Origin: Pseudomonas sp. HS6
GTDB lineage: Bacteria > Pseudomonadota > Gammaproteobacteria > Pseudomonadales > Pseudomonadaceae
Direction of reading: 5' to 3'
DNA: 64,000 nucleotides
Assembly: GCF_023375815.1 (NCBI RefSeq)
Contig: NZ_CP067412.1
Coordinates: 2,666,001 to 2,730,000 of the forward strand
Shown in pieces: positions 11,359 through 49,102 of this stretch; positions within the stretch are counted from its first letter, which is position 1; every line of letters begins with the position of its first letter. The notes beneath the pieces were generated by a model, which worked only from the letters and a program-made list of their open reading frames with translations, was not told where the DNA came from and ran no database searches. The translations under genes were made by a program, and so were the position numbers.

Positions 11359-11480
11359 AAGCCTCTCTCGAATCGAAAATTGAACCATCTCAGGTACGTA
11401 TCTCTGGCGGTACGCACCGGTTGATCTTCAGCCCAATGTCCATCCAGGCGTTGGCCAATTTTTCGAGTGAGGCGTGTCAG

Positions 11481-17581: not shown

Positions 17582-20500
17582 ATGCTAGACAACACTTCCT
17601 TGCGTGGGATGAATCCCGTGCAGCCCGACGTTTCATCCTCGATTCCGTTCGACACCGATCTGTGCGTGCACGGCCTGTTTGAAGCGCACGTGCTGCGCAA
17701 CCCCGAGGCCATTGCCGTACGTTGGCAGGAAGAGGCGCTCAGTTACCGCGATCTCAATATCCGGGCCAATCGACTGGCCCATCACCTGCGCAGCCTTGGG
17801 GTCGGGCCGGATGTGCGGGTGGGGATTTGTCTCGAGCGTTCGCTGGAGATGCTGGTGGGCGTGCTCGCAGTGCTCAAGGCCGGAGGCGCTTATGTGCCAC
17901 TGGACCCGGCATATCCGCAAGCGCGGCTGGCGCACATGCTGGCCGACAGCGCGCCGCCGGTGGTGTTGACCCACGGTCAGGCGCGGCATGTCTTGTTGGC
18001 CGCGCTCGAACAATCGGCCACTGCACCGACAGTACTCGATCTGGGTGATTCAACACATTGGGCTTCACAGTCACCGGACAATCCCGATCCTTACGCGACA
18101 GGCCTGACACCCCGACACCTGGCCTACGTTATCTATACATCCGGTTCGACAGGCACCCCGAAAGGCGTGATGGTCGAGCATCGCGGGCTGATTGCCGTGA
18201 GCGCTGCCTGGGCACAACTCTATGCCTTGGGTGAGCCGATCAATCACCTGCAAATGGCCGGTTTTTCCTTCGACGTGTTCAGCGCCGATCTGATCCGTGC
18301 GTTGGGGTTTGGCGGCACGCTGGTGCTGTGCCCTCGGGACACTTTGATGGACCCGCCGGCCCTGTATCGCTTGATGCAGGAAGCGAAGATCGGCTTTGCC
18401 GACTTCGTCCCGGCGCTGCTCAATCCCTTGCTGGCCTGGGTCGAAGAGACCGGCCATGACTTGTCATTTCTGCGCACCGTGGTCTGCGGCTCGGACATCT
18501 GGACTGCCCACAGTGCGCGGCAATTGCGCAGGCTCTGTGGTGAGCGGGTGCAGATCGTCCAGGCTTATGGCGTGACCGAAGCGAGCATCGACAGCACCTG
18601 TTTCGAGTTCACCGAAGGCAGTCAGGTCGACGCGGTGTTGCCCATTGGCCAGGCACTGCCCAATACCCGGATTTACCTGCTGGACGAGCAAGGATTGCCC
18701 GTTGCCGAGGGTGTCGCCGGCGAGCTGTACATCGGTGGCGTCGGCGTGGCGCGGGGTTATCTGAACCTGCCGCAACTCACTGCCGAGCGTTTCATCGACA
18801 ACCCGTTCGTGGCGGGCGAACGCTTTTACCGAACCGGGGATCTGGCGCGTTACCGCACGGACGGTCAAGTGGAGTTCCTCGGCCGCAACGACTCCCAGGC
18901 CAAGTTGCGCGGTCTGCGTCTGGAACTGGGGGAAATCGAAACCCGGCTGGCGGACATTGCAGGCGTGCGTGAAAGCGTGGTGCTGCTGCGTCAGGACGGC
19001 CTCGGTGAACCTCGACTGGTCGCTTATTACTGCGAAAAACCGGGCACAACGCTGAGCCCGCGTTCATTGCGCGAACAGCTGCAAATCAGCCTGCCGGATT
19101 ACATGGTTCCGACTGCATTCGTGCGTCTGGATGCGTTTCCGCTGACCGCCAACGGCAAGGTCGATCGGCCCGGTTTGCCGGCGCCGGACGTCGAGGCATT
19201 CGATCAGCAGGAATACCAGGCGCCACAGGGCTCTTTGGAAACTGCGCTCGCCGCGATCTGGGCCGAGGTGCTCGGCGTTGAGCGAGTGGGGCGTGAAGAT
19301 CAGTTCTTTGCCCTCGGCGGTCACTCGCTGCTGGTGATGCGTGTGCTGGCGCAGGTTCGTCATACGCTAGGGCTGGAAGCCGCGCCTTCGACCCTGTTTG
19401 CCGCCCCCGTTCTGAAGCAGTTCGCCGAACGGCTGCAAGCCAGTCAGGTCGCGGCTCGTCCAGCCATTGCGGCCCTTGAACGGTCTGGCGCGCAAACGTT
19501 GTCGTCTGCTCAGCAGCGCCTGTGGTTTCTGGCACAGATGGAGGGTGGCAACGCGGCGTATCACATGCCCCTGAACCTGCGTTTGCGTGGATCACTGGAT
19601 GTGCCGGCACTTGAGCGCAGCTTCAATCAACTGGTGGCGCGCCACGCTGCACTGCGCACGACGTTCATCGCCGTCGAAGGGGAAGGACGGCAGCAGGTTT
19701 CACCACCTGCGCACAGCATTCGACTGACCGTAACCGATCTGCATGGTCCCGATACTCAAGAACTTCTCACACGGTTGATCGACGAGGAGGGCGACCGGCC
19801 GTTCGACCTGAGCCGTGGCCCGCTGATGCGCGTAAGTCTGGTGCGACTGGCGGCGGACGATCATGTACTGCTGCTGATCCAGCACCACATCATCTCCGAT
19901 GGCTGGTCGATGGGCGTGCTCACTCGTGAGCTGGGGCAACTATACGAAGCGGCGTTGCAGGATCGCGACGATCCGCTGCCGCCATTGCCCGTGCAGTACG
20001 TGGATTACGCCGTGTGGCAAAAGCATTGGCTGTCCGGCAACGTGTTGGAGCAGCAAAGCTGTTACTGGCGCGAAACCCTCACAGGCGCACCGGTGCTGCT
20101 CGAGTTGCCGACCGATCACAAGCGTCCGCCCGTGCAGGATTACCTCGGCGGCTTTGTCCCACTGATCGTTGACGAAGCTTTGACCACGCGCCTGAAAGCC
20201 TTGGGCATGCAGCAAGGCACCACGCTGTTCATGAATTTGCTGGCCGGTTTTTCGCTGCTGTTGTTGCGCCTGTCGGGGCAGAGCGATGTGGTGATCGGCG
20301 TGCCGTCGGCCAACCGTCCGCAACAGGAACTGGAAGGGTTGATCGGTTTCTTCGTCAACACCCTGGCCCTGCGCATGACCCAATCGGGTACGCCGTCAGT
20401 AGCGCAATGGCTGCAACAGGCGCGGCGGGTTGCGCTGGAGGCTCAGGAGCATCAGGACCTGCCGTTCGAGCAAGTGGTGGAATTGCTCAACCCGCCACGC

Positions 20501-23500
20501 AGTCTGGCCCACAGTCCGTTGTTCCAGGTGCTGTTTGCCTGGGAGCAGGATCAGGATTCCGACCTGCTGCTGACCGGGCTTGAAGTCACGCCGGTCGAGA
20601 GCAGTCATCACGTAGCCAAGTTCGATCTGCAACTGGCGCTCAGTGAACGGGACGGGCAGATTGTCGGTGGGCTGGAGTTCGCCTCAGGCCTGTTCGAACG
20701 CGGCACCGTCGAGCAGTTCGGCGAGTACCTGCGTCGGGTGCTGACGCAAATGGTCGAGGACAGCCAACAGTCGCTGGTGAGGATCAAGCTGCTGAGCGCC
20801 GAGCAACACCAGCAGATCGTTTATGACTGGAACCGTACCGCACAGGATACCGCGTCGCTGCCCGATTGCGTGGCGCGTTTCGAAACTCTGGCCCGGCAAA
20901 CGCCCGATGCCGTGGCGCTGCTCGCCGACCGCGAGCAACTGAGTTATGGCGAACTGAACCGCGCGGTCAACCGTCTCGCGCATTACCTGATCGAACAAGG
21001 CGTCAGCCCCGAGCATCGCGTCGGCCTGTGTCTTGAGCGTTCGCCGCAGATGGTTATCGGCCTGTTGGCGATCCTCAAGGCTGGCGCCGCGTACGTGCCA
21101 TTCGATCCGGCTTACCCGAGCGAACGTCTGGCGTTCATGTTCAGCGATGCCGCGCCGACCTTGCTGTTGACTCAGTCCAGTCTTTTGGCCGGACTGCCGG
21201 CTCACGAGGCGAAAGTCTGCTGCCTGGACACTGACGCATCGCAATGGGCACAACACTCAACTGATGAACCGCAGGTCTCGGTGAGCCCGGAAAACCTCGG
21301 CTATGTGCTCTACACCTCCGGCTCCACCGGCCGCCCGAAAGGCGTGGCCCACAGCCGTCGTGCGCTGAATAACCTGATCGCCTGGCAACTCGATCAAACC
21401 ACGGCACCACGGCGTGTGCTGCAATTCGCCTCGCTGAATTTCGACGTCTCTTTCCAGGAAGTCTGCAGCACGCTCTCCCAGGGCGGCAGCCTGTTGCTGA
21501 TGACCGAAGACGGCCGCAAGGACCTCGCCGCGTTGCGCCCGACGCTCGTGGCCGAAGGTGTGCAGCGGGCGTTCCTGCCGTTTGCCGTGTTGCAGCAACT
21601 CGCCGGTCTGAGCGAGGCCGATGCACCCATGCCGGCCGGTGGCTGCGAAATCATCACCGCCGGTGAAGCCCTGCAAATCAATGACGAGCTGCGCGGTTTT
21701 GTCCGTGGGCTCGGTGGGGCGCAGTTGCACAACCAGTACGGGCCGACCGAAACCCATGTGGTCAGCCAGTTCAGTCTTGCCTGTAGCGAGGCCGAATCCT
21801 GGCCGGACGCGCCGCCCATTGGCCGGCCCATCGCCAACGTGCGGCTGTACGTGCTGGACGAACACCTGAATCCCGTCCCGGTCGGCGTGGCGGGCGAGTT
21901 GTACATCGCCGGCGCGTGTCTGGCCCGGGGTTACTTGAACCGCCCGGACCTGACCGCCGAACGCTTCCTGCCGGACCCGTTCAGCGAAGAACCGGGCGCG
22001 CGGATGTACCGCAGCGGCGACCTTGCGAAATTCCAGGCCGACGGCAACGTGAAATACCTGGGACGTATAGACCAACAGGTGAAACTGCGCGGCTTTCGCA
22101 TCGAACTCGGCGAGATCGACAGCCTGCTGCATCAACAGCCCGGCGTGCAGGAAGCCGCCGTGCTGTTGCGTGAAGACGTGGCCGGGGACAAGCGTCTGGT
22201 GGCGTATGTGGTCGGCTCCGCGACCAGTGAATTTCTGCGTGCCGAACTGCAACGCCAGTTGCCCGAACACATGATCCCGAGTGCCTGGGTTCGGCTTTCG
22301 CAATTGCCACTGACCCGCAACGGCAAGCTCGATAGACAAGCGCTGCCGGCACCGGAGCGCAGTGCCGGGGCAATCTACGAGGCGCCGCGCAATGACACCG
22401 AACGGCAAATGGCCGAGATCTGGGCCGAAGTGCTCAAGTGCGAGCGGGTCGGCATCTACGACAACTTCTTCGACCTCGGCGGCCACTCGCTGCTGGCGAC
22501 CCGGATGATCTACGCGATCAACCAGCGCATGGGTGCCCAGCTGTCCCTGAGCAGCCTGTTCCAGACGCCGGTTTTGATGGATCTGGCTGCACAGGCCTCG
22601 CGTGATGATCAAAGTATCGAGCCGGCGTTCATCCAGATCGAGCCGGATCGTGGCGCCCGACATGAACCATTCCCTCTGACCGATATCCAGCAGGCCTACT
22701 GGTTCGGTCGCGAGGCTACGGTCAGCCTCGGTGGCGTCAGCGCCCACGGCTACGAAGAACTGCGGATTCCCGACTTCGACGCCGAGCGTTTCGAACGAGC
22801 CCTGAATCGCATGATCCTGCGTCACGACATGCTGCGCGTGGTGTTCCTCAGCGACGGCACGCAACAGGTGCTGGCGCAGGTGCCGACCTACTGCATGCCC
22901 CGCAGCGATCTGCGCGGTTTGCCTGTCGACGTGGCGCAACACACGCTGGAAACGACCCGCGAACGCCAGTCCCATCAAGTGCTGGACGCCAGTCGCTGGC
23001 CGCTGTTCGAGTTCAGCCTGTCGCTGCTCGATGACGGCATCACCCATCTTCACATCAGCCTCGATGCGCTGATCGTCGACGCCGCGAGCACGCAGATTCT
23101 CGCCCGCGAATTGATGGCGTTCTACGTCGATCCGACGCTGGAACGGGCGGAACCTGGCCTGACCTTCCGCGACTACGTGCTGGCCGAACAGCAACTGCGC
23201 AGCGGCCGCCGCTACGAACAGGCGCTGAGTTACTGGCGCGAACGGGTGACCACTCTGGCCCCGGCGCCAGACCTGCCGCTGGTGTGCCAACCCGAAAGCG
23301 TTACCAACCCGCACTTCACCCGCCGCGACCGCGACATGTCGGCCGCGCAATGGACGAAACTCAAGGCGGTGGCCAAACAGTTTGCGGTGACGCCGTCGGT
23401 GATGCTCCTGACAGCCTTCAGCGAAGTGCTGGCGCTGTGGAGCCGCACCCCGCGTTTTACCCTGAGCCTGCCGCTGTTCAACCGTATGCCGCTGCACCCG

Positions 23501-26500
23501 GATATCGACGAAATCATCGGCGACTTCACCTCGCTGGTACTGCTGGAAGTCGGCATCGACGGAACTCAAACCTTCACCGACAAGGCCCGCGCCGTGCAGG
23601 CGCAGCTCTGGCGCGACATCGATCATTCGGTGGTCAGCGGCGTGCGGGTGCTGCGCGAATTGTCCCAGGCCCGGGGCGTGCAGCAGACGGCAATGCCGAT
23701 CGTGTTCAACAGCACGCTGTCGGAAGCAGCGCCGGAACTGGCCGAGTTCAACCTGGCCGACGCGTTGAACGCCAAACACATGCACAGCATCACCCAGACC
23801 CCGCAGGTATGGCTCGACCACACCTTGCTGGAGCTGGAAGGACGGCTGTTGTTCAACTGGGACAGCATCGACGAACTGTTCCCGCAAGGCATGATCGAGC
23901 AGATGTTCGTCGCCTATAACACGCTGCTGGATCGCCTGTGCGAGCCGCAAGCATGGAACGCAAACACGCCACAACTGCTGCCGCAAGCGCGCTTGCCGGC
24001 GCCGGTCAACAAACAGCAAACGTTGCCGTTGATGCACGAACTGTTCGAGCGTCAGGCCCTTGTCACGCCGGATGCACTGGCGGTGATCGGCGCGCGACAG
24101 TTGACTTACGCCCAGGTGCGCAGCGAAGCCCGGCAACTCGGCGCCCGACTGCAAGCGCAGGGTGTGATGCCGAACCGCTTGGTCGCGGTGGTGATGGAGC
24201 GCGGCTGGGAGCAAGTAGTCGCAACCCTGGCAATTCTGTATGCCGGCGGCGCCTACCTGCCCATCGAACCCAGTCAGCCAGCGGAACGGTTGCGGCATAT
24301 TCTGGAGCGGGCCGAGGCAAGCCAGGCCCTGACCCAACCGGAGTTGCTCGACAAAATCGAATGGCCGGCGCAGGTCACGGCCATTGCCGTGACCGATGAA
24401 GTCTCAAACGATGGACTGCCACTGCAACCAGTTCAAGTGAACGAAAGCGACCTCGCCTACGTAATCTACACCTCCGGCTCCACCGGCCAGCCCAAAGGCG
24501 TGGTGATCGATCATCGCGGTGCGGTCAACACCTTGCTCGACATCAACCGGCGCTTTGCCGTCGGCCCGAACGACCGCGTATTGGCGATCTCTTCGCTGAG
24601 TTTCGACCTGTCGGTCTATGACTTCTTCGGCACGCTGGCGGTAGGCGCGGCGGTGGTCATCCTCGACCCGCAACTGACCCTTGATCCGGCGCACTGGCTC
24701 GAATTGATCAAGCGTCATAAGGTCAGCCTGTGGAACTCAGTGCCGGCGCTGCTTGGCATGCTGGTCGAGTACGTGGAGGGCGAGGGCGGCGCGTTGCCTG
24801 CCAGCCTGCGGGTGGCGATGCTGTCCGGCGACTGGATTCCGTTGACCCTGCCCGAGCGGGCCTGGGCCTTGCAGCCAGATTTGCAACTGATCAGCCTGGG
24901 CGGCGCCACCGAAGCATCGATCTGGTCGATCTATTATCCGGTGAAGCACGTCGACCCGGCCTGGCGCAGCATTCCCTACGGCAAGGCCCTCGATCATCAG
25001 CGTTTCTACGTGCTGGATGAAGCGCTGCAAGTGCGCCCGACCTGGGTTGCGGGTCAGCTGTACATCGGTGGTATAGGTCTGGCGAAAGGTTACTGGCGCG
25101 ATGAAAAACTCAGCGCAGGCAGTTTCTTCGCTCATCCACTGACCGGCGAACGGCTGTATCGCACCGGCGACCTGGGCCGTTTGCTGTCGGACGGGAACAT
25201 CGAGTTCCTCGGTCGCGAAGACAATCAGGTCAAGGTCCAGGGCTATCGCATCGAGCTGGGCGAGATCGAAGCCGCGCTCAATCGTCATCCCGGCGTGCAG
25301 AGCGCGGTGGTGCGAATTCTTGGCAGCACGCTGGGTGAGAAACGTCTGGCAGGCTATGTGCTCAAGGCTGATCCAGCGTTGCAGGCGAGTGATTTCACCG
25401 ACTACCTGACGGACAAGCTGCCGGCTTACATGATTCCGACGTCGTTTACCTTCGTCGAAGCCTGGCCGTTGTCCTCCAACGGCAAGGTCGACAAGAAACG
25501 CCTGCCGGAACCGGCACAAATCGAAGAACAAGGGCCGGCGCTGGACGTCGAGGGCCCGCAGGAACAGCGGCTGGTGGAAATCGTGCAGGACGTGCTCAAG
25601 CGCGAATCCATTGCCGCCAACGCCAACCTGCTGAACCTCGGTGCAACATCGATCGATATCGTCCGGATCAGCAACGCTTTGTCCGGCGCCTTGCAGTTCC
25701 GCCCGCATGTGGCGCAGCTGCTGGCCCAGCCGACGTTGCTGCATCTGCTCGGCATGTACCGCCAGAACCTTTCCCGCCAGGAGCTGCTCGGCAACGTTCA
25801 GCAGACACCGGAAACAACGCAGGATGTCATCGAAGATCCGCAACAGCGGGCGCAGTTCAAGGCTGAACAACGTGGCCGTCGTAACTTTGCTCAAGCCCTG
25901 CCGGCAGTGGCATTGGAACTGCCACAAGACCCGGCCTTCACCCGACGTTTGAGCGATTACCGCTCAGTGCGTCAATACGATCTGCAACCGATCGCCACCC
26001 AAGCCTTCGCGCATTTGTTGGCCGCACTGGCCCAGGGGCAACTCGACGGCGAGGTGAAATACCAGTTCCCGTCGGCGGGCGGCCTGTACCCGATTCAGGC
26101 GTACCTCTACATCAAACCGGATCGCGTGCTCGGCGTGCCCGGTGGCGCGTATTACTACGATCCCCGCCAGCATCGTTTGCTGGCGCTCCAGAGCGGATTG
26201 CTCGACCCGGACACCTACGACTATTTCGTCAATCGGCCGGTGTATGAGGACGCCGCGTTCTCGCTGTTCTTCATCGCCGACATGGCGGCGATTCGTCCGC
26301 TGTATGGCGAGCGCAGCCGTGATTTTTGCCATATCGAAAGCGGGGCTATGGCCCAGTTACTGAGCATGACTGCCGTCGAGCACGGGTTGGGCCTGTGTGG
26401 AATAGGCTCGGTCGAGGAGCAGCAACTGACGGCGCTGTTCGACCTCGGGCCAAGTCATGAGTTGATCTACTCGATGATCGGCGGGTTACGTACGGCCGAT

Positions 26501-30699: not shown

Positions 30700-33600
30700 T
30701 GAGTGCGTCCAAAGACATGACGTTGCTTGCGCGTTTCGCCGAGCAAGTGAAGCGTAATCCGCAAGCTCCGGCCGTCATCGACGGAGCGGTAACCCTGACT
30801 TACGCGGAACTGGCCAGCGCCAGCGAGCGCATCGCCCGAGGGTTGCTGGCGCGTGGCGTCGAGCCCGGGCAATCGCTGGCGTTGTGCATGCCGCGTTGCT
30901 GGCAGTGGCTGGCGGCTATTCTTGGCGCGCTGAAAGTTGGCGCGGTGGTGGTGCCGCTGGACCGTGCCAGTCCGCTCAAACGCCGTGAGTTGATGCTGGC
31001 GGATGCGGCGTGTGTCGGCCTGATTACCCAGGATGAGGAATCGCTGTGGTCGCCTTCACTGTGGCAAACCAGCGTCGAGGCCTTGCTCGATCAACCGGAC
31101 GTCCCACCGCAAGCGCTGGCTGAAGACTTTGCCGAGGTGATGTTCCTGTTCTACACCTCGGGCACCACCGGCACGCCGAAAGCGGTCGAGGTCGGCGAGC
31201 GCGGCTTGCTGCGCCTGGTGCACACCGACGGCTATATCGAAATTCGTCCGACGGACCGCTTCGCCTGTCTGTCCAACCCGGCGTTCGATGCGTGCAGTTT
31301 CGAGCTGTGGGCACCGCTGCTCAACGGTGGCTGCTGCGTGATGATCGCCGACGAGGACGTGCTGGATGCGCGGCGGCTCGCCGAACTGCTGGAGCGGACG
31401 CAGGTCGACAACCTGTTCATGACGGTGTCGCTGTTCAACACCTTGATTGCCGAATGGCCGTCGTGCTTTTCCAGCGTGCGGCAGGTGCTGATTGGCGGTG
31501 AGCAGATCAGCGCTGCGGCGGTTCGTGCATGGTATCGGGCCAATCCAGAGAGCCAGTGCCGGATTCATAACGTCTATGGCCCCACCGAATGCACCACGTT
31601 TGCCCTGTGCTGGCCGATCAGCCGTGACTTTACCGGCGACTCGGTGCCCATTGGCCGCCCGTTGCCGGACACCCGCGTGCACGTGCTGGATGAGCAGCAA
31701 CGACCGGTGCGGGCGGGAGAAGTGGGCGAGCTGTATTTGAGTGGCAGCGGTGTTGCCCGTGGCTATCGCAACCGGTCCGAAGAAACGGCCCGTCAGTTCG
31801 TCCGACTGCCCGACCTCGATGGTGGCGCATACGTCCATTACCGCACCGGCGATCTGGTGCGGCGCAATGCCGAAGGTTTGATGGAGTGTCTGGGACGGGT
31901 CGACCGTCAGGTGAAGATTCGCGGCTTCCGCATCGAGCCGGGGGAGGTGGAGCAACGGATGCTGGAGCACCCGGGCGTGGCGCAGGTGTATGTTTGCACC
32001 CGGCGTCAGGCGGCAGAAGATCATCAGATGCTGGCGTTTATTGTGCCGCGCGGGGATCTGGACTATCACGCCTTCGAAACCCATCTGCGGGCACAACTGG
32101 CGCCGTATATGCGACCGCATCAATTGTTTCTGCTGGAGCGCTTGCCGCTGACGGCTAATGGCAAGATTGATCGTGAGGGGTTGCTGGCGCAGGGGCTGAG
32201 TCCGTGGCATCCAGTTTTGGCGGCGATGGAAGACGACAACGCTTCACCGGAGCTGGACTGGTTGCTGAGTCAGGTCCGTTCACTGCTCGGTCAACGGAGT
32301 CTGAGTGCACAGGATGACTGGCTGGGCAGTGGCGGCGATTCGCTCAAGGCCATGCGTTTGCGTTCGGCGATTCGTAACCGTTGGCAGCGCGAGATCCCCC
32401 TCGACACTCTGCTCAACCAGTCTTTCTCATCATTGGCCGGACAACTGATGAGTGAGCGTGGCGATTCGATCTATCCACCTGCGCCTGCGATCAGTCGTGC
32501 CATACGCTTGCCGGCCACCGCTGAACAGCGCCGTTTGTGGCTGTTGCAACAACGTTCGCCGACCTCGACCGCTTACAGCGTGCCGCTGATTCTGCATCTG
32601 GCGGCGAGTATCGACGTCGCGGCTCTGTCCGAGGCCGTGGGACGTCTGGTGATGCGTCATCCCGGATTGCGCACGGCGTTCGTGCCCGGTGCCGATGGCC
32701 TCGATCAGGTGATCGCCGACCAAGGCTCGGCGTGCCGTACCTTCGCGGTCGGGCATATCACCGAGGACAATTGGCAGGCTTTCGCGGAGCTGGTCTTTGC
32801 CGCGCCGTTCGACCTGACCACGCCGAACCTGTTTCAGGCGTGGCTGTTGCCGTTCGCCGATGGTAGCTGTCGGCTGCTGCTGAATCTGCATCACATCATC
32901 GTCGATGGCTGGTCGGTGAACCTACTGTTCGACGACCTGACGCAGCTCTACACCGACGCAGTGCAAGGTCGCGAAAGCCCGGAATCGCGAGCAAATCTGA
33001 CGACGCTGGAATTTGGCCAGTGGCAGCGCCAGTGGGGCGTCGATCCGTATTATCGCGACCAGCGTCGCGCCCTGGCCGAGTTGCATCGTCGGCAGGAGGA
33101 ACCGTCACCTGCATTGATGCCAATGCGCGAAATCAGCCCGGACGCTCGGTTACACCGGGAACCGTTAGGCGCCGCACGCAGCACCGCCCTCGAACGCTTT
33201 TGCACGCAACAGCGACTGACCCGTTTCGAAGTGCTGTTCAGTGTTTTCGTCTGGAGCCTGTACGCGTTGACCGGGTGCGAGCGGCCCCGGATCGCCAGCC
33301 CGGTGGCCAACCGGCCGCTGGCGGAATTCGAGGACAGCGTCGGCATGTTTGCCAACACTGTGCTGATCCCCACCGCCTCTGATCACGCACTGACCCTCGG
33401 CGAGCAGTTGCGCAAGCAGACCGCCGCCGTGCGCGAGGTGCTGGCGTTGCAGGACGTGGCGCTGGCGGATCTGGTGGAAGACCTGCGGCTGTCGTCAAAT
33501 ACCGCGCTGTTCGATTTCATGTTCGTGCTGGAAAACACGGATTACGCGGCGCTGGCCGATTCAAATCTGCGCGCCACGCTGGAGTTCAACGAGCATCTGC

Positions 33601-36600
33601 AAGCGAAGTGCCCGCTGACCTTGTTGATGGTGGGTAGCGGTTCGCAGCTGGAATGCTGGTGGGAATATCAGTGCAGCTACTTCGATGCTGAACAGATGCA
33701 TACGGTGAACGCGCTGTTTCGCCGTGGTCTGGACCTGTTGCTGGAAACCCCGGCGACTACACTCGACAGTCTGCTCGGTCCTTATCGACACGGTTTGGCC
33801 CCGGCCAGTGAAGGGCCGAAGGGCGAACTGCCGTTCATTACGCTCGCGGACTGGTTCGAGCATCAGGTGCATTGCACGCCGGATGCGGTTGCGCTGGTTC
33901 AAGGTCAGCGCCGCCTCACCTATGGCGAGCTGAATGGACTGGCCGACGCTCTGGCTGCTGACTTGGTCGAGCGTCATCCGTTGCCGGCCGGAAATGTTCC
34001 GCTGCATGTCGTGCTGTTTCTCGACGCGTCGGTGGAACACATCATCGCCTTGCTGACCCTGGCCAAACTCAACCTGACGGCCGTGCCGCTGGATCCCGCT
34101 TACCCGATGGCGATCCAGCGTCAGGTGATGGAGCAGGCGCAGCCGCATTGTGTGCTGTTCAGCGACACGACGGCGGCCGCGCTCGATGATCTGAATGCCG
34201 GCCGGTTCGCCGTGCATCGGGTCGATCTGCGCGCCGATGCCGGATCGTTCGAGCGTCCACGCCACACTGGTGAGCGACCGCTGTACACGCTGTTCACCTC
34301 CGGCTCGACTGGCACGCCCAAAGGTGTGCAAGTGCCGGAACGCACCCTGTGCAACCTGCTGCAATGGCAGCGCAGCGAAGGGCAGTTGCCGGCGAAAGCG
34401 GTGACCTTGCAATTCTCCATGCTGTCGTTCGATGTGTCGTTTCAGGAGATTTTCAGCACCCTGTGCGGGGGCGGCAGCTATCACCTCATTACGCCGCGCT
34501 GGCGTCAGGATGCCGAGGCGTTGCTGGATTACATGGTCGAGGCGCGGATCGAACGGTTGTTCCTGCCGTACGTGGCTTTGCAGCATCTGGCGCAAACCGC
34601 TGTAGCCCGGGGTTTTTACCCGTCGGCATTGCGCGAAGTGATCACCGCCGGGGAGCAATTGCTCTGTACCGACGCGCTGCGCAACTGGTTCGGCGGCATG
34701 CCCCAAGCTTCATTGTTCAATCACTATGGCCCGACCGAAACCCATGTGGTCAGCGCCTTGCGTTTGCCAGCCGTGGCGCGTGACTGGCCGTTGCGGGCGC
34801 CGATTGGCCATGCTGTTGGGAATGCCCGGTTGATGTTGGTCGATGAGCACGACCGCCCGGTGCCGAACGGCTGCCGTGGTTACCTGCTGGTGGCGGGGCC
34901 GATGGTTGAGCGTTGTTATCTGGCAGATCCTGCGTTGAATGCGGCGCGGTTCGTCGAGTTGGCAGAGGGCCGCTTGTTCTATCGCACCGGCGATCTGGCG
35001 TGGGCCGACGCCCAAGGCTGTCTGCATTACCTGGGACGTGATGATCAGCAGGTCAAACTCAGCGGCCATCGTCTGGAGCTGGGGCAGATCGAGGCGGCGC
35101 TGATGCAGGTGCCGGACGTGGTCAACGCGGTGGTGGCGGTTCAGGTCGATCCACCGCGACTGACCGCGTGGCTGCAACTCGATGGCGAACCTGCGACGTC
35201 GCAACAACTGGATCGGCAGGTCGCACAACGACTTCCGGCCCATGTGCGCATCGATGAGTATCGACGAATCGACGTCTGGCCACGGACTCCCAGCGGCAAG
35301 ATCGACCGCAAGGCCTTGCCGGCTCTGGGCGAAGCGCTTGAGCGTCGCAGCACGCCACAACCGGGTGTTCAATTGACCGCACTGGAACGGCAGCTGAGCG
35401 AGCTGTTCCAGGCAGTGATCGGGCGGGGCATCGAACCGGAGCAAACCTTCTTCGAGGCCGGCGCCACGAGCCTCGGCCTGATGCGCCTGCACGCGCGCTA
35501 CGCCCAGGAACTGCCGCACAAGGTGACGATGGCCGACCTCTTCGAGCACGTCACAGTACGGCGTCTGGCGGCGCATCTGTCGACCGCCCCGGTGGCAGCC
35601 GTGGAGCGCGTACGGCAAGCCGATGCAGGCCATCAACCGATGGCGATCATCGGTATGTCGGTCAATGTGGCCGGGGCGCAGAACCTGTCCGAGTTCTGGG
35701 CGATGGTGCAAGGCAACGAGTTGGGCATCGAGCACTTTGCCGCCGAAGACGGCCTGATCGGCGCCCGCAGCCAACTGGCCGGCATGCTCGATTTCGATCC
35801 CGAGTACTTCGGCATCAGCCGTCAGGAAGCGCGGCTGATGGACCCGCAACAGCGGCATCTGCTGATGGGCTGTGTGCAGGCATTGCAACATGCGGCCATT
35901 GTCCCGTCGGCGGACGGACCGCGCATCGGCCTGATCGCCAGTTGCGGCGAAACCACGTATTTCCAGCAGATGTTGCGTGACACGGCCGAAGGCGATCTGC
36001 CGGACGGCTTCCAGATGGCGCTGCATCACGACAAGGACTTTCTGGCGACCAAAGCCGCGTTTCACCTGGACCTCAACGGCCCGGCGCTGAGCGTGCAGGC
36101 GGCGTGCGGCAGCTCGCTGATCGCCGTGCACCTGGCCAGTTCGATGCTGCGCCAGGGTGACAGTGACGTGATGCTCGCGGCCGGTGTGCTGATCGATCCG
36201 ACCCTGACAGATGGCTATCGCCACCGTTCGCAGCACATCTTTTCCGCCGACGGTCTATGCCGCCCGTTCAGCGACGACGCCAGCGGGACCATCGGCGCCA
36301 GTGGTTATGGCGTGGTGGTGCTCAAGCCATTGGCCAAGGCGCGTGCGGATGGCGACCGGATCTACGCGTTGCTCGAAGGTTCGGCGCTGAACAACGATGG
36401 CCGGGCCAAGATGAGTTACACCGCGCCGTCGGTGGCCGGGCAGAGCGCGGTCATCAGTGACGCCTTGAGTCGCGCCGGGTTGACCGGCGCGGACATCGGC
36501 TACATCGAGGCCCACGGCACCGGCACCTTGCTGGGGGACCCGATCGAGGTCGCGGCGTTGACCAAGGCGTTCGGCGAGGTGCCGGCCGGCAGTTGCGCGC

Positions 36601-39600
36601 TGGCCTCGGTGAAGAGCCAGATCGGACATCTGGGCGCGGCGGCGGGGGTGGTCGGGCTGATTCGCGCGAGCCTGGCGGTGTTCCATGGCGTGCTGCCACC
36701 GAACCTCGGGTTTGGCCGGATCAATCCGCAGATCGATCTGGAGCATTCGCCGTTCTACGTGCCCACCACATCGCGGCCATGGCCGGAGGGGCGGCGGCGT
36801 CTGGCCGGTGTCAGCAGTTTCGGGATTGGCGGTACCAACGCTCATGTGATTGTCGGCGCTGCACCCAAGGTGCAGGAGGTGGTCGGGGAAACGCTGCCAC
36901 TGTTGATGATCTCGGCTCACAGTCGAACGGAATTGCTGCGCGATATCGCGGCGATCCGCGACTATCAGCAAACGTTCCCGGAGCAGCACACCGCGTTGCT
37001 GCGGCACTTGCAGTCAGGTCGCAGGCAACTGCGCTGGCGCTTCGGGATGGTCTGCCAGCCGGGTGATGAAATTCCTTTGCAGCCGACATCGATCAAGGAA
37101 GTCACTGCCTCGGGGACACAGCTGATAGCCCGGGACCATTCACCACAAACGGTGCTGGAGGCGTGGTACGAAGGCGCAAATATCCTGTGGTCGCAGCGCT
37201 CGGCACCGCCGCCGTGGGATTTGCAGCCATCGTCGTTCGATCTTCAGACTTATCGGTTTCAACCCGCTGGCGAAATCGTTGCCCCCGTTTCGGCAGGCAT
37301 TGAGCGGCAACCGCTGGCGCAGTGGTTCCATCAGCGGCAGTGGGTGCGTGTCCAACGCCTGAGCGTGAAGGCATCGGATGCCAAACGAGAAACGCTGATC
37401 CTTTGCAGTCATGAAGCGCCCAGCTCGACGTTGCTGGAGCACCTGCGAGCGGTATATCGACGCGTAGTCCAAGTGCGCGCCGGCAATGGCTTCAAGCAAC
37501 TCGGTGCGGATCGTTTCGAGCTGGATCCGCTGGACATCGAAGACTTGAGCCGGTTGCTCACCGAGGTCGTAGAACCTGAACTCGGCGAACTCGACTGGTT
37601 GCACACCTTGCCACTGGCGGTGTCAGGCGCAGTCAACGAGCAATCTCTGGATCTGGCGCAATGGGCCTGTCTGGACACGGTCAGCGCGCTGATGCAGGCC
37701 TGGGGGCAAACCGCGCGCACGACGCGACTGCGGCTGTGGTTGATGTCGTGGCAGGCGTGTCCGGTGGATGGTGAGGTTCGGCGTCCCGAACTGGCGGCAC
37801 TGGCCGGGATCAGCGAAGTGGTGCCGCAGGAATACCCGGTGCGTTGCCACTGGCTGGACTGGCCGTCGCCGCACCTTGATACACAGGCCGGGGAGCTGGC
37901 GGCGTTGCTCGGAGACCCGGCGGTGTTGCCTCGGCGGATGGCGGTGCGTGACGGTTACCTGTGGCAGCCACGGTTGATCGCTCACCCATTGCCGGGGCCG
38001 ACCACGACTTCCAGCCTGCTGCCGGAAGACGGCACGTTTCTGGTCCTGGGTGGAACCGGTGGGATCGGTCGGACCCTGTGTGAACACCTGCTGCAAGCGC
38101 CCGCGCGGCGTGTGGTGTTGCTCTCGCGTCAGGGGCGATTGCCTGCAAATCTGACGGCTTATGCGTCGCGGATCGATTGCATTCAGGCGGACATCGCTGA
38201 CCTGTCGCGTTGGCCGCAAGTACTCGATCAACTGGCCCGACGCTACGGTCAACTGACCGGGGTCATTCATGCGGCAGGTGTCGGCGCGGGCAGTCTGATT
38301 CGTCACCGCGCCCCCCGGCAGATGGCCGAGGCGATGGCCGCCAAGACCCGCGGCATGCTGGCGGTCGAAGCCGTGATCGAACAGCTTTCGCCGGGTTTTG
38401 TCCTGTACTGCTCGTCGATGTCGGCGCTGTTCGGCGGCGCGGGGCATCTGGATTATTCAGCTGCCAGCGGTGTGCTCGACGGCTTCACTCATTACCGTGC
38501 GGATTCGACCAATACTTGCCTGCGTCTGGGGATCAACTGGGATATCTGGCGCGACATCGGCATGGCCACGACCAGCAATGGCGGGGACGCTGCGCACCTG
38601 GAGCATCTGACGGTCGGCTTGTCGGCGGAAGAGGGTTGTCGGGTATTCGATCTGGCGATGGCAGCGCAGTTGCCGCAGCTGTTGGTTTCCACCACCGGCA
38701 TCGACACGGCGCGGTGCTTCTATCCGGTTCGCCATGGCGCTGTGGGTGCGCAGGCCGAGGCGCCGAAGGGCGTGGATCTTTCCGTGCGCCTGCGTAAATG
38801 CCTGTGCAAATGGCTCGGCGTCGCTGAGCTTGAGGACGACGATTCGCTGTACGACCTGGGCGCGGATTCGCTGACGTTGCTCGATCTTATCGACGAACTG
38901 CAAGCGGCTACCGGCGAGGTGTTCCAGTTATCGCAGTTCAGCCACAAGGTTAGCCTGAGCGAAGTGTTGGGGCTGGTGGCAGATTCCACGGAAGAGGCTT
39001 CAGCGGACGCGCCGCACAACTGGAACGACGCGGTGCGGATCGATCAGTGGCATGCCGGCGCCGGTCGCGAGTGGCTGTACCTGATCCATCCGGTGGGCGG
39101 CGATGTTCAGGCCTACCGGGAACTGGTTTCGGCGTTGCCGGCGGATCTGGGGGTGTGCGTGATTTCGGACCCCGCGTTGCGTCTGCCGGCGCTACCGAAC
39201 ATCAGCATTGTCGAGCGCGCCCGGTTGTATCTGGAGGCAATCAAGGCTCACATTCCGGACGTTTGCGCCTGGCGTCTGGCGGGTTGGTCGTTCGGTGCCT
39301 GGGTGGCGCAGGCGCTGTGTCAGCAAGCCCAGGCGGACGGTTTCAGGCAACCGCTGCTGTACCTGATCGATCCACCCGCGCCGGATGCCGGTGCGGAACT
39401 GGCCGGCATCGACGAGCGGACCATCGAGCAGGTGTTCCAGCGTGAGTTCGCCCAGCGCTGGCCCGGCGTCGAAGGGCAGGCGATGTCCGAGGAACGTAAG
39501 GCTTATCTGCAACGGCTGACGGTGTGCTGTCGCAACAACATGACCAGCATGGTCGATTTTCAGCCGCCCGCGCTGACCACCACCCCGGTGCGGATGTTCA

Positions 39601-39791
39601 TCGCCGGACACGCCAATCCTTATGGGCTGGGTAACAACTGGAACATGGAAAAGCTGCAACGCAACTGGCAAGCCTTGCTGCCGCAGTTGCAGAGCTGGCA
39701 GCGACTGGACACCGATCACTACGGCATCGTGGCGGGTCGCTGGGCGCGCATGCTGGCCGAGGTCATTGGCACGGATGGGCTGTCGATATGA
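30696..39791 (+). CDS. NRPS-PKS hybrid: A-T-C-A(Pro)-T-KS-KR-ACP-TE, acyltransferase missing
   Basis: This 3031-aa protein starts directly with an A domain (~5-505; code near DAFFLGVTFK, Ile/Val-like), then T (Ser549) and C (HHIIVDG at 732). A second A domain follows (~1046-1545; DVQLIAHVVK, proline), then T (Ser1592) and KS (~1645-2060, Cys1804 in QAACGSS, EAHGTGT, KSQIGH). After KS the pre-AT linker (SGRRQLRWRF, ~2107) leads within ~45 residues to a post-AT-like segment (WYEGANILW, TYRFQP). No GHSxG acyltransferase exists. KR (GGTGGIG at 2452), ACP (Ser2725) and TE (Ser2865 in GWSFGAW) finish it. Predicted output is branched amino acid-proline extended by a malonyl unit and reduced to a beta-hydroxy acid, with malonyl supplied in trans. 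Confidence 0.92.
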   Translation: MMSASKDMTLLARFAEQVKRNPQAPAVIDGAVTLTYAELASASERIARGLLARGVEPGQSLALCMPRCWQWLAAILGALKVGAVVVPLDRASPLKRRELMLADAACVGLITQDEESLWSPSLWQTSVEALLDQPDVPPQALAEDFAEVMFLFYTSGTTGTPKAVEVGERGLLRLVHTDGYIEIRPTDRFACLSNPAFDACSFELWAPLLNGGCCVMIADEDVLDARRLAELLERTQVDNLFMTVSLFNTLIAEWPSCFSSVRQVLIGGEQISAAAVRAWYRANPESQCRIHNVYGPTECTTFALCWPISRDFTGDSVPIGRPLPDTRVHVLDEQQRPVRAGEVGELYLSGSGVARGYRNRSEETARQFVRLPDLDGGAYVHYRTGDLVRRNAEGLMECLGRVDRQVKIRGFRIEPGEVEQRMLEHPGVAQVYVCTRRQAAEDHQMLAFIVPRGDLDYHAFETHLRAQLAPYMRPHQLFLLERLPLTANGKIDREGLLAQGLSPWHPVLAAMEDDNASPELDWLLSQVRSLLGQRSLSAQDDWLGSGGDSLKAMRLRSAIRNRWQREIPLDTLLNQSFSSLAGQLMSERGDSIYPPAPAISRAIRLPATAEQRRLWLLQQRSPTSTAYSVPLILHLAASIDVAALSEAVGRLVMRHPGLRTAFVPGADGLDQVIADQGSACRTFAVGHITEDNWQAFAELVFAAPFDLTTPNLFQAWLLPFADGSCRLLLNLHHIIVDGWSVNLLFDDLTQLYTDAVQGRESPESRANLTTLEFGQWQRQWGVDPYYRDQRRALAELHRRQEEPSPALMPMREISPDARLHREPLGAARSTALERFCTQQRLTRFEVLFSVFVWSLYALTGCERPRIASPVANRPLAEFEDSVGMFANTVLIPTASDHALTLGEQLRKQTAAVREVLALQDVALADLVEDLRLSSNTALFDFMFVLENTDYAALADSNLRATLEFNEHLQAKCPLTLLMVGSGSQLECWWEYQCSYFDAEQMHTVNALFRRGLDLLLETPATTLDSLLGPYRHGLAPASEGPKGELPFITLADWFEHQVHCTPDAVALVQGQRRLTYGELNGLADALAADLVERHPLPAGNVPLHVVLFLDASVEHIIALLTLAKLNLTAVPLDPAYPMAIQRQVMEQAQPHCVLFSDTTAAALDDLNAGRFAVHRVDLRADAGSFERPRHTGERPLYTLFTSGSTGTPKGVQVPERTLCNLLQWQRSEGQLPAKAVTLQFSMLSFDVSFQEIFSTLCGGGSYHLITPRWRQDAEALLDYMVEARIERLFLPYVALQHLAQTAVARGFYPSALREVITAGEQLLCTDALRNWFGGMPQASLFNHYGPTETHVVSALRLPAVARDWPLRAPIGHAVGNARLMLVDEHDRPVPNGCRGYLLVAGPMVERCYLADPALNAARFVELAEGRLFYRTGDLAWADAQGCLHYLGRDDQQVKLSGHRLELGQIEAALMQVPDVVNAVVAVQVDPPRLTAWLQLDGEPATSQQLDRQVAQRLPAHVRIDEYRRIDVWPRTPSGKIDRKALPALGEALERRSTPQPGVQLTALERQLSELFQAVIGRGIEPEQTFFEAGATSLGLMRLHARYAQELPHKVTMADLFEHVTVRRLAAHLSTAPVAAVERVRQADAGHQPMAIIGMSVNVAGAQNLSEFWAMVQGNELGIEHFAAEDGLIGARSQLAGMLDFDPEYFGISRQEARLMDPQQRHLLMGCVQALQHAAIVPSADGPRIGLIASCGETTYFQQMLRDTAEGDLPDGFQMALHHDKDFLATKAAFHLDLNGPALSVQAACGSSLIAVHLASSMLRQGDSDVMLAAGVLIDPTLTDGYRHRSQHIFSADGLCRPFSDDASGTIGASGYGVVVLKPLAKARADGDRIYALLEGSALNNDGRAKMSYTAPSVAGQSAVISDALSRAGLTGADIGYIEAHGTGTLLGDPIEVAALTKAFGEVPAGSCALASVKSQIGHLGAAAGVVGLIRASLAVFHGVLPPNLGFGRINPQIDLEHSPFYVPTTSRPWPEGRRRLAGVSSFGIGGTNAHVIVGAAPKVQEVVGETLPLLMISAHSRTELLRDIAAIRDYQQTFPEQHTALLRHLQSGRRQLRWRFGMVCQPGDEIPLQPTSIKEVTASGTQLIARDHSPQTVLEAWYEGANILWSQRSAPPPWDLQPSSFDLQTYRFQPAGEIVAPVSAGIERQPLAQWFHQRQWVRVQRLSVKASDAKRETLILCSHEAPSSTLLEHLRAVYRRVVQVRAGNGFKQLGADRFELDPLDIEDLSRLLTEVVEPELGELDWLHTLPLAVSGAVNEQSLDLAQWACLDTVSALMQAWGQTARTTRLRLWLMSWQACPVDGEVRRPELAALAGISEVVPQEYPVRCHWLDWPSPHLDTQAGELAALLGDPAVLPRRMAVRDGYLWQPRLIAHPLPGPTTTSSLLPEDGTFLVLGGTGGIGRTLCEHLLQAPARRVVLLSRQGRLPANLTAYASRIDCIQADIADLSRWPQVLDQLARRYGQLTGVIHAAGVGAGSLIRHRAPRQMAEAMAAKTRGMLAVEAVIEQLSPGFVLYCSSMSALFGGAGHLDYSAASGVLDGFTHYRADSTNTCLRLGINWDIWRDIGMATTSNGGDAAHLEHLTVGLSAEEGCRVFDLAMAAQLPQLLVSTTGIDTARCFYPVRHGAVGAQAEAPKGVDLSVRLRKCLCKWLGVAELEDDDSLYDLGADSLTLLDLIDELQAATGEVFQLSQFSHKVSLSEVLGLVADSTEEASADAPHNWNDAVRIDQWHAGAGREWLYLIHPVGGDVQAYRELVSALPADLGVCVISDPALRLPALPNISIVERARLYLEAIKAHIPDVCAWRLAGWSFGAWVAQALCQQAQADGFRQPLLYLIDPPAPDAGAELAGIDERTIEQVFQREFAQRWPGVEGQAMSEERKAYLQRLTVCCRNNMTSMVDFQPPALTTTPVRMFIAGHANPYGLGNNWNMEKLQRNWQALLPQLQSWQRLDTDHYGIVAGRWARMLAEVIGTDGLSI

Positions 39792-40474
39792 ATGAGTCGA
39801 TTTCAATGCCTCGCTGGTTGTTCACATTGATGCAGGTGCTGGGCGAAGGGCAGCCCGAAGTCTTGCATCAGCGGATGTACAGGTTCGATGAACCGCAGTC
39901 GCTGCGGCGGGTTCATCGCTGGCATGCCGACGTGGTGCTGCCGATGCTGTGCGAGGCATTGCCGGAACATCGGCCAGCGCTGCTCGCATTACAAAGCCTG
40001 CATCAACGGGCGGCGCTCGGCTTGTCCGGGCGTCAGGGTGAATGGCGGGCCACGCTCAAACCGGTGTTGCTCGCGCTGTATCGACGGGCCTATGCCTACG
40101 AGACGGCGTACGCCCAGGCCCATGCGAGTGCGATGACTTACGGCCTCGCGCCGACCAACACCGTGATGATCGCCGAGCACTTTGGCGATGCCGAAGCGTT
40201 TGCGGTGTATTACGCGCAATTGAATACCGAGGCCAGTGCCACGGCGTTTGCTCAGGCTCATGCCGCCGCCAATGCTGAAATCTCGTCTCGGGCCTTTGCG
40301 ACTGACGATGCTGACGCGTACGCGCAAGTGTGCGCGGCGTCGGCGCGGGTCTGCGTCTGGGCCTGTGCGCAGACCGACGAGCAACGGAATGTGCTGTTCA
40401 ACAGGCTTGCCGAAGGGCTGATCCAGCACCTGCCGGCGCTGCAATCCCATTCAACAGGAGAACGACATGAATGA
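39788..40474 (+). CDS. Ala-rich protein of unknown function in the biosynthetic operon
   Basis: This 228-aa protein matches no family I recognise. The N-terminal half has the pattern MPRWLFTLMQVLGEG and a His/Trp-containing RRVHRWHADVVLPML. The C-terminal half is strongly Ala/Tyr/Phe-rich and helical in character (YAYETAYAQAHASAM, AFAVYYAQLNTEASA). It has no signal peptide or membrane span. Its start overlaps the hybrid synthetase stop (ATGA) and its end overlaps the MbtH gene by 8 bases. It is therefore translationally embedded in the pathway and probably acts in tailoring, chain transfer or assembly. No function is assigned. Confidence 0.75.
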   Translation: MNESISMPRWLFTLMQVLGEGQPEVLHQRMYRFDEPQSLRRVHRWHADVVLPMLCEALPEHRPALLALQSLHQRAALGLSGRQGEWRATLKPVLLALYRRAYAYETAYAQAHASAMTYGLAPTNTVMIAEHFGDAEAFAVYYAQLNTEASATAFAQAHAAANAEISSRAFATDDADAYAQVCAASARVCVWACAQTDEQRNVLFNRLAEGLIQHLPALQSHSTGERHE

Positions 40475-40682
40475 CGCACAGCTGCAATTCGTTGTGGTGA
40501 TCAACGCCCAAGGTCAGTATTCCCTGTGGCCGGCGGGCAAGCCGATGGCTAGCGGCTGGAGCGCGGCCGGGATGCGTGGCGAACGTCAGGTCTGTTTGGA
40601 CTACATCAACCAACACTGGGTCGACATGCGCCCACGTTCGCTGCGCGAAAACCTGTCGCCGTCGTCGGCGTCGTTCCAATAA
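40467..40682 (+). CDS. MbtH-like protein
   Basis: The 71-aa protein has the MbtH signature: QGQYSLWP near residue 14-21, SGWSAAG, CLDYINQHW and a closing DMRPRSLR. These proteins bind and stabilise or activate adenylation domains of NRPSs, so it likely serves some of the six A domains here. It overlaps the preceding gene by 8 bases. It lies 16 bases before the dioxygenase, whose ribosome site AGGA falls in the gap. Confidence 0.95.
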   Translation: MNDAQLQFVVVINAQGQYSLWPAGKPMASGWSAAGMRGERQVCLDYINQHWVDMRPRSLRENLSPSSASFQ

Positions 40683-40698
40683 AAAAGGGTGAGGAAAC

Positions 40699-41568
40699 AT
40701 GGATCAGTTGGCACTCAAGGCAATCGAGCGCATCGCCGCAGAAAAGCGTGCGCCCTATCAGCGCATCACGGTCGACCGGATCACACCGATCATCGGCGCC
40801 GAAATCGGCGGCGTCGATCTTTCACAACCGCTGAATGACGATCAGCTCGCGGAAATCCGCCGGGCCTTTCTGGAGAACCACGTGCTGGTGTTTCGCGATC
40901 AGCATCTGACGGTAGAGGAACACAAGGCGTTTGGCCGGCTGTTCGGTGAACTGCGGGCGTTGCCGGTGGAAGACATCGACGGCGATGACCCGGAACTGGT
41001 GGTGATCCGCGCCAATGCGCAATCGCGCTACGTGGCCGGCGAAACCTGGCACACCGACGGCACGGCTGACCTGGCGCCGTCCATGGGGTCGATGCTGTAC
41101 GTCAAGGAAACCCCGGCCATTGGCACCGGTGGCGATACGTTGTTCGCCAACATGCACCTGGCGATCGAAATGCTCTCGCCGACGATGCAGCAGTTTCTCG
41201 GCGAATTGACCGCGATTCACGACGGCGCAATTCCGTGGAAGGGCTATGAAGCGCCGGCCAACCTGCCCAAGACCGAACACCCGGTGGTGGTTCGTCACCC
41301 GGAAACCGGGCGCAAGTCACTGTTCGTCAATTCCGGGTTTACGTCGCACATCGTGCAATTGTCCGGTGGCGAAAGTCAGGTGCTGTTGAACATGCTGTTC
41401 GACCTGGTCGCCCGGGAGCCGTCCCTCAGTTGCCGCGTTCGCTGGGCGCCGAACACGTTGGTGTTCTGGGACAACCGCTGCACCCAGCACCACGCGATTT
41501 GGGATTACTTCCCGCATTCACGTTATGGCGAGCGGGTGACGATCCTCGGGACGCAGCCCAAGGCTTGA
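40699..41568 (+). CDS. TauD/TfdA-family Fe(II)/2-oxoglutarate dioxygenase
   Basis: The 289-aa protein carries the iron triad H118-x-D120 (TWHTDGT) and H264 (CTQHHAIWDY), plus the 2-oxoglutarate-binding Arg in RYGERVTILG. The family hydroxylates or desaturates unactivated carbons. As the last gene of the NRPS-PKS operon, it most likely hydroxylates the peptide or a precursor; the proline unit is the attractive candidate by analogy with detoxin-type clusters. GAGG lies upstream of ATG 40699. A strong terminator follows 16 bases after the stop. Confidence 0.93.
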   Translation: MDQLALKAIERIAAEKRAPYQRITVDRITPIIGAEIGGVDLSQPLNDDQLAEIRRAFLENHVLVFRDQHLTVEEHKAFGRLFGELRALPVEDIDGDDPELVVIRANAQSRYVAGETWHTDGTADLAPSMGSMLYVKETPAIGTGGDTLFANMHLAIEMLSPTMQQFLGELTAIHDGAIPWKGYEAPANLPKTEHPVVVRHPETGRKSLFVNSGFTSHIVQLSGGESQVLLNMLFDLVAREPSLSCRVRWAPNTLVFWDNRCTQHHAIWDYFPHSRYGERVTILGTQPKA

Positions 41569-41584: not shown

Positions 41585-41613
41585 AGAGGGAGCAACGTGC
41601 TCCCTCTTTTTTT
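41585..41613 (+). terminator. Strong intrinsic terminator ending the biosynthetic operon
   Basis: AGAGGGAGCA-ACG-TGCTCCCTCT forms a perfect 10-bp stem with a 3-base loop, followed by six further T residues (41608-41613). It lies 16 bases after the dioxygenase stop. The convergent minus-strand gene ends within its T-tract, so the hairpin may also stop that transcript. Confidence 0.92.
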
Positions 41614-42301
41614 AAATGCCGTGACGGATCAGTTGCTCGACGATCAACTCACCGAACGCCAGATTGCCGTGCAGCGGGTCATCCACTTCGCAGTACGCCT
41701 GACGCTGAAAACCCTGCTCATCGTTCGCCGCCTCTCGCACGTCGATCAGCTCGACGCCCAGGCCTTGCAGGCGCTCGATCAACAATGACTGCGCGGCCAT
41801 GAACACGCGCGGGTCGGACAGCTCCGGCACCCGTTGCGGCGGCAGCACAGCGAACACCTTGAGGTTCAGCGCCAGGGCCTGCTCATAGAAGGCCAGCGCG
41901 GGGCGGGACAGGGTGTCGATGACCGCCTCGAACAATGGCCCGGCGAGAAAACCGTCGTCGAACTCGCCGTGCGCATTCTGGTAGCAGGTCCAGTTCGGCG
42001 CGGTGGCGAGGTAGTGCAGGCTCAGGCCGATAGTGCTCACCAGCGGCACGCTGACCTTCGCCAGTTGCGGCACTTCGAGCGTGTCGAGGGCCTGACGATA
42101 CAGCCGATCCATTTCCCCATCCCGAAAGACCACGTCATTGCGCGCCAGGCTGAAGAAATCGACGGCGAAGTCCCGACCGGTTCCCAGCGGACCGCCGCCG
42201 AAAGGCAGCTCACGAGCCTGCGCCGCCTTGCCGATGACGCCGGCATGGGAGTCGCCCAGCAGCAGAAACCTAGGCGTAGTAATCGAGTACGGCGTCTTCA
42301 C
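41612..42301 (-). CDS. SGNH-hydrolase-like protein of unknown substrate
   Basis: This ~229-aa protein opens with FLLLGDSHAGVIG, a GDSH block typical of SGNH/GDSL-like folds, where the Ser is the usual nucleophile. A late D-P-L-H-G-N element (EVDDPLHGNLAFG) could supply the Asp/His pair. It has no signal peptide. I chose GTG 42301 because GAGGA lies about 8 bases upstream; this overlaps the preceding GSCFA gene by 32 bases, so the two are coupled. It is convergent with the NRPS operon. It could tailor the product or act on cell-surface glycans; neither is shown. Confidence 0.7.
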   Translation of the reverse strand: MKTPYSITTPRFLLLGDSHAGVIGKAAQARELPFGGGPLGTGRDFAVDFFSLARNDVVFRDGEMDRLYRQALDTLEVPQLAKVSVPLVSTIGLSLHYLATAPNWTCYQNAHGEFDDGFLAGPLFEAVIDTLSRPALAFYEQALALNLKVFAVLPPQRVPELSDPRVFMAAQSLLIERLQGLGVELIDVREAANDEQGFQRQAYCEVDDPLHGNLAFGELIVEQLIRHGI

Positions 42302-48757: not shown

Positions 48758-48768
48758 ATAAAAACGAA

Positions 48769-49092: not shown

Positions 49093-49102
49093 GGGCGTGA
49101 AC

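What the first reader, a model, noticed from the sequence alone, without database searches (positions are those of the whole stretch)
17582..41568. Biosynthetic cluster with two separately primed assembly lines
NRPS1 and the hybrid both start with an A domain and no C domain, and NRPS2 and the hybrid both end in thioesterases. NRPS1-NRPS2 should build (Arg-like)-(Pro-like)-thiazole-X, and the hybrid should build (Ile/Val)-Pro-beta-hydroxy acid. ATGA overlaps tie both into one operon, so the products may be joined, for example as an ester or amide by one TE. I know no described Pseudomonas metabolite with this arrangement.
Basis: partly seen in the sequence, partly recalled or inferred. Interest (0 to 1): 0.85.

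Follow-up and report, generated by a model that had tools for sequence, protein, structure and literature searches.

The report
Pseudotetraivprolide (detoxin-like) biosynthesis gene cluster
This is a Pseudomonas copy of an already described gene cluster for pseudotetraivprolide, a small molecule that protects some bacteria from the antibiotic blasticidin S; the two-assembly-line design is real, but it was worked out in print in 2025.

Summary
Two NRPS genes and one NRPS/PKS hybrid, joined by three ATGA overlaps, form two assembly lines. Each line starts with an A domain and ends in a thioesterase. The codes fit the predicted Arg-Pro-thiazole-X and (Ile/Val)-Pro-beta-hydroxy acid. The claim that no such Pseudomonas metabolite is described fails. 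The locus matches the published pipA-H cluster of Pseudomonas entomophila for pseudotetraivprolide, a detoxin/rimosamide-like anti-antibiotic (PMC12828459). All eight genes are collinear with P. entomophila COR5 at 53-87% identity. A-domain codes agree with COR5 at 51 of 54 read positions. PipF and PipG carry the residues named in the paper at the same numbers. The paper assigns the ester between the lines to the PipB thioesterase. Of 298 sampled Pseudomonas genomes, 22 hold PipC, the same 22 hold PipE, and 12 of those hold PipD. Verdict: real, read correctly in the main, already known.

The parts
17582..26590 (+). pipA orthologue: NRPS A(Arg)-T-C-A(Pro-like)-T-Cy-A(Cys)-T-Ox; no starter C domain
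   Evidence: Pfam; codes; 74% identical over 3010 aligned columns to P. entomophila COR5 PipA, 93% to G202
26587..30699 (+). pipB orthologue: TubC_N docking-C-A(probably Met, from the published product)-T-TE; this TE is the ester-forming one in the published account
   Evidence: Pfam; 78% to COR5; A code identical at 9 of 9 read positions in all 6 orthologues compared; TE role read
30696..39791 (+). pipC orthologue: hybrid A(Ile/Val)-T-C-A(Pro)-T-KS-[no AT]-KR-T-TE
   Evidence: Pfam (no PF00698 match); 69% to COR5; the PDB sequence matches include entries named AT-less polyketide synthase
39788..40474 (+). pipD orthologue; in the published account part of the PipDFG O-acetylation complex
   Evidence: 53% over 195 columns to COR5 PipD; found in 12 of 298 Pseudomonas genomes, all 12 also holding PipC
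40699..41568 (+). pipE orthologue: TauD-family dioxygenase, proline-ring hydroxylase in the published system
   Evidence: PF02668 E 1.1e-58; 87% to COR5; same 22 of 298 genomes as PipC
41612..42301 (-). pipF orthologue (hypothetical protein, predicted hydrolase-like in the paper) with Ser18, Asp208, His211, taking the GTG at 42301 as start
   Evidence: against residues named; 74% to COR5; no Pfam match up to E 0.1 on the longer ORF
42270..43304 (-). pipG orthologue (GSCFA) with Ser46, Cys47, His51, Thr238, Glu296, taking the GTG at 43304 as start
   Evidence: PF08885 E 4.3e-54 on the longer ORF; residues; 78% to COR5
43343..43858 (-). pipH orthologue: GNAT N-acetyltransferase
   Evidence: PF13302 E 4.6e-25; 66% to COR5

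Best explanation
The locus is the pip cluster for a pseudotetraivprolide-type depsipeptide. PipA and PipB assemble Arg-Pro-thiazole-Met. PipC assembles Ile/Val-Pro extended by one malonate and reduced to a beta-hydroxy acid, with malonate loaded in trans because the PKS module has no AT. The PipB thioesterase joins the tetrapeptide to the beta-hydroxyl of the PipC-bound chain as an ester, and the PipC thioesterase releases the product. PipH then N-acetylates the Arg end, PipE hydroxylates the proline ring and PipDFG O-acetylates it. Gene content, domain order, specificity codes and active-site residues are shown here. The chemical steps are taken from published work on P. entomophila and inferred for this strain.
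For: Domain order. All eight genes collinear with P. entomophila COR5. 51 of 54 A-domain code positions identical to COR5. PipF S18/D208/H211 and PipG C47/H51 at the published numbers. No AT domain in PipC and a free-standing FabD next to fabG and acpP in the genome. Published deletions, TE mutants, synthesis and FabD kinetics as read. PipC and PipE orthologues in the same 22 of 298 genomes.
Against: PipC is 69% and PipD 53% identical to COR5, so small product differences are possible; PipC A2 differs from COR5 at two read positions and PipA A2 at one. The L48 sequence itself was not compared. Met at the fourth place rests on the paper's mention of methionine sulfoxide derivatives; I could not assign the PipB code from a call. 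The paper gives the mutated PipB TE residue as Ser-2856, which cannot lie in a PipB of the length seen here (1370 aa, TE Ser1210) and is closer to the PipC TE serine (2865 here; about 2849 in COR5, counted from its likely start); its supplement was not open to me. The genome has a third, FabD-like AT, so which AT loads PipC here is not settled. No expression or metabolite data.
Confidence: 0.95

Rival explanations
1. The same pathway making a congener that differs in one residue or acyl group, for example another amino acid at the PipB or second PipA position.
For: PipA A2 reads DVQFIAQVVK, with Q where PipC A2 has H in the Pro code; identity to COR5 is 53-87%.
Against: The Q is present in all seven PipA orthologues compared, COR5 included, and the PipB code is identical in all six compared. 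The published synthesis builds the thiazole fragment from proline.
Confidence: 0.08
2. Two independent products, the two lines never being joined, or one linear chain in which the hybrid extends the NRPS chain.
For: Each line has its own A-first start and its own TE; free tetrapeptide and free ivprolide are seen in the published system.
Against: PipC begins with an A domain and no C domain, so it has no domain to accept the PipB chain in line. In the published system PipB TE mutants lose all full-length products and accumulate both halves (see the residue-number caution).
Confidence: 0.03
3. PipC is loaded by the third, FabD-like AT of this genome, encoded in another AT-less PKS cluster near 5.885 Mb, rather than by FabD.
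For: A free-standing AT (305 aa) follows a KS-DH PKS ORF, beside further PKS ORFs without an AT match.
Against: Published kinetics show transfer by FabD, and E. coli makes 1a from pipC without an added AT.
Confidence: 0.1

Closest known systems
pseudotetraivprolide (pip) cluster of Pseudomonas entomophila L48, PMC12828459 (parts 1-3 of 5 of the text read)
   Same: pipA-H gene content and domain order; no starter C in PipA; AT-less PipC; pipH present; catalytic residues of PipF and PipG at the same positions
   Different: Another Pseudomonas; 53-87% protein identity to a P. entomophila strain (COR5)
chitinimide (chm) cluster, Chitinimonas koreensis, PMC8302735 (passages)
   Same: hybrid NRPS/PKS plus TauD core, ester-linked halves, blasticidin S antagonism
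   Different: three further NRPS genes with eight modules and a ureido linkage, against PipA/PipB with four modules here
pseudovibriamide (ppp) cluster, Pseudovibrio, PMC11796379 (passages) and PMC12911931 (outline and introduction)
   Same: hybrid PppD, hydroxylase PppK, two TE domains, blasticidin S antidote activity of the full-length product
   Different: three NRPS genes (pppABC); PppHIJ proposed for propionylation and/or as a trans-AT; whether PppHIJ correspond to PipDFG was not tested here
detoxin and rimosamide clusters, Streptomyces (as described in passages)
   Same: hybrid NRPS/PKS without AT domain and a TauD-like gene
   Different: shorter peptide half (up to three A domains)

Membership tests
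detoxin/rimosamide-like (DRL) cluster | signature NRPS/PKS hybrid A-T-C-A-T-KS-KR-T-TE without AT | tested here: met
   69% identical to the COR5 PipC
detoxin/rimosamide-like (DRL) cluster | TauD-family dioxygenase beside the hybrid | tested here: met
   PipE found in 22 of 22 sampled genomes holding PipC
detoxin/rimosamide-like (DRL) cluster | product protects Bacillus cereus from blasticidin S | not testable with these tools
   needs extracts
pip (pseudotetraivprolide) cluster | two NRPS (PipAB) plus one hybrid (PipC) | tested here: met
pip (pseudotetraivprolide) cluster | PipA without a starter C domain, pipH present | tested here: met
   A domain starts at residue 33; GNAT at 43343-43858
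pip (pseudotetraivprolide) cluster | pipD, pipF and pipG present with PipF S18/H211 and PipG C47 | tested here: met
pip (pseudotetraivprolide) cluster | A-domain codes as in P. entomophila | tested here: met
   51 of 54 read positions identical to strain COR5; L48 itself not compared
pip (pseudotetraivprolide) cluster | product is the Arg-Pro-Thz-Met / Ile-Pro-beta-hydroxy acid ester | not testable with these tools
   needs LC-MS

The most novel reading that the evidence does not exclude
This strain feeds its pip hybrid from the free-standing AT of a second, unrelated AT-less PKS cluster in the same genome, so that two pathways share one loading enzyme.
Probability: 0.06. Interest if true: 0.4.

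Novelty: already known. Interest (0 to 1): 0.18.

Why it matters
It adds one more genome to a widespread anti-antibiotic family whose ecological role, according to PMC12828459, remains to be solved. The patchy presence of pipDFG and pipH across Pseudomonas makes O- and N-acetylation variants testable by comparing strains.

Tried and rejected
Considered an unknown cluster with two products: rejected once PMC12828459 was found by searching for detoxin and rimosamide. Considered a hidden AT domain between KS and KR of the hybrid: no PF00698 match in the protein, and the genome search found three matches, all in short free-standing ORFs. PipD against plasmids found nothing. Rfam on the window found nothing at gathering scores. 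The scan upstream of pipA found no promoter-like site (shuffles 0.7 on average) and one terminator-like site (shuffles 1.2). In one search one column of the A-domain code was set one residue too far; one search repeats the reading with the column moved by one. In some searches the P. cerasi A_A3 row is a wrong match (its first A domain found again) and is dropped. In one search, 25 of 298 genomes matched; three (G018, G036, G133) match only over the KS at 45-48% and are not counted as PipC, leaving 22; a second, partial KS match in G093 is not counted either. For the presence counts, 32 of the 37 loci were used: L058 and L064 (pieces of one assembly) and the three non-Pseudomonas loci were left out. 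L064 has pipD-pipG and no pipH; the non-Pseudomonas loci (L062, L063, L065) match PipC at 29-40% and none of PipD to PipH at E 1e-25. 'Absent' in those counts means not found in the fetched stretch, which for L037 ends about 2.6 kb after PipC.

Full report
Observation. Pfam, which places only the best stretch of each family, together with motif positions (motifs recalled) and the translations, gives A-T-C-A-T-Cy-A-T-Ox for 17582-26590, TubC_N-C-A-T-TE for 26587-30699 and A-T-C-A-T-KS-KR-T-TE for 30696-39791. The first and third genes open with an A domain, and the second and third close with a TE. The junctions at 26587, 30696 and 39788 all read ATGA. The C, Cy, KS, T and TE motifs looked for are present. 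The A-domain codes, read on an alignment with anchors and numbering recalled from GrsA (the last K is assumed), are DVADVGAIDK, DVQFIAQVVK, DLYNMSLIWK, DAWVFGVVIK, DAFFLGVTFK and DVQFIAHVVK. From recall these fit Arg, Pro, Cys, an unassigned hydrophobic residue, Ile and Pro.

The hybrid has no AT domain. The cluster continues past 41568 on the minus strand: pipF (41612-42301), pipG (42270-43304, GSCFA) and pipH (43343-43858, GNAT). The gene at 40699-41568 is a TauD-family dioxygenase.

Identity of the cluster. A literature search for detoxin and rimosamide led to PMC12828459; I read parts 1-3 of 5 of its text and searched it for terms. It describes pipA-H of P. entomophila L48: two NRPS, one hybrid, dioxygenase PipE, hypothetical PipD and PipF, GSCFA protein PipG and N-acetyltransferase PipH. 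The product, pseudotetraivprolide, joins an Arg-Pro-thiazole tetrapeptide (ending in methionine, to judge from its methionine sulfoxide derivatives) to an Ile/Val-Pro unit extended by malonate. According to the paper, PipB-TE forms the ester, PipC-TE releases the product, FabD loads the AT-less module, PipH N-acetylates, PipE hydroxylates the proline ring and PipDFG O-acetylates. [quoted passage not shown] One caution: the paper numbers the mutated PipB TE serine 2856, which cannot fit a PipB of the length seen here (1370 aa, TE Ser1210) and is closer to the PipC TE serine (2865 here). The paper also reports deletion of the PipB TE and cites in vivo and in vitro work on chitinimide for the same role, so I keep the assignment.

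Test of membership. In P. entomophila COR5 (not L48 itself) all eight genes are collinear with the window, at 74, 78, 69, 53, 87, 74, 78 and 66% identity for PipA to PipH. 51 of 54 A-domain code positions agree. With GTG starts at 42301 and 43304, PipF has Ser18, Asp208 and His211, and PipG has Ser46, Cys47, His51, Thr238 and Glu296, the residues and numbers given in the paper.

Distribution. Of 298 sampled Pseudomonas genomes, 22 hold a PipC orthologue (25 match; three match only the KS and are not counted), the same 22 hold a PipE orthologue, and 12 of these hold PipD, with no PipD match in the other 286. In 32 named Pseudomonas loci (of 37; two pieces of one assembly and three other genera left out), pipD, pipF and pipG are all found in 13 and all not found in 19, never mixed; pipH is found in 29 of 32 and not in two P. 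gingeri and one P. fuscovaginae loci. PipB is whole in 30 of 32; in L057 the contig starts inside it, and in P. cerasi (L054) only residues 947-1370 are found. In a P. gingeri cluster without pipH, PipA has a whole extra N-terminal Condensation-family domain; in two clusters with pipH and without pipDFG (G099, G145) it has only the latter half of one. This agrees with the paper's statements on the starter domain and pipH. Pseudomonas sp. N40 (L048) has no pipDFG in its stretch although its PipC is 84% identical to the window's.

AT supply. The genome has three Acyl_transf_1 matches, all in free-standing ORFs: FabD beside fabG and acpP, malonate decarboxylase epsilon beside its gamma subunit, and a third FabD-like protein, just below the FabD cut-off, behind a KS-DH PKS ORF in another cluster. 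FabD is the published loader; the third AT is an untested alternative here.

Verdict. What remains open here (exact congener, AT used, ecological role) needs bench work.

Noticed in passing
L083:10196-15879 and L084:18-15293 (genome 5.874-5.899 Mb, outside the window): A second PKS/NRPS cluster with several KS domains and no AT match in the PKS ORFs scanned, with a free-standing AT, an amine oxidase, an isochorismatase-family protein and a 4'-phosphopantetheinyl transferase; product not identified.
   Followed up: partly
L054 (P. cerasi) and L074/L075: The cluster lacks a middle part: PipA matches only to residue 1721 and PipB only from residue 947, side by side, so the Cys module, the Ox domain and most of the PipB module are missing and the line looks broken.
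   Followed up: partly
PMC12828459, text read: The mutated PipB TE residue is given as Ser-2856, a number that does not fit PipB's length and lies nearer the PipC TE serine; possibly a numbering slip.
   Followed up: partly
L048: Pseudomonas sp. N40 has PipC at 84% but no pipD, pipF or pipG in its stretch, suggesting a loss within the window's own group.
   Followed up: partly
window 2660-7640 and 11421-16520 (+): ABC transporter, HlyD and outer-membrane efflux genes and, further on, an Ig-like repeat adhesin; a likely type I secretion set.
   Followed up: no
window 48046-52316 (+): Biotin carrier, biotin carboxylase and two carboxyltransferase-domain proteins in a row, a likely carboxylase operon.
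   Followed up: no
genome 2.583-2.620 Mb, about 60 kb upstream of pipA: Very large NRPS open frames (2146, 5606 and 4929 aa), perhaps a lipopeptide cluster, close to the pip cluster.
   Followed up: no
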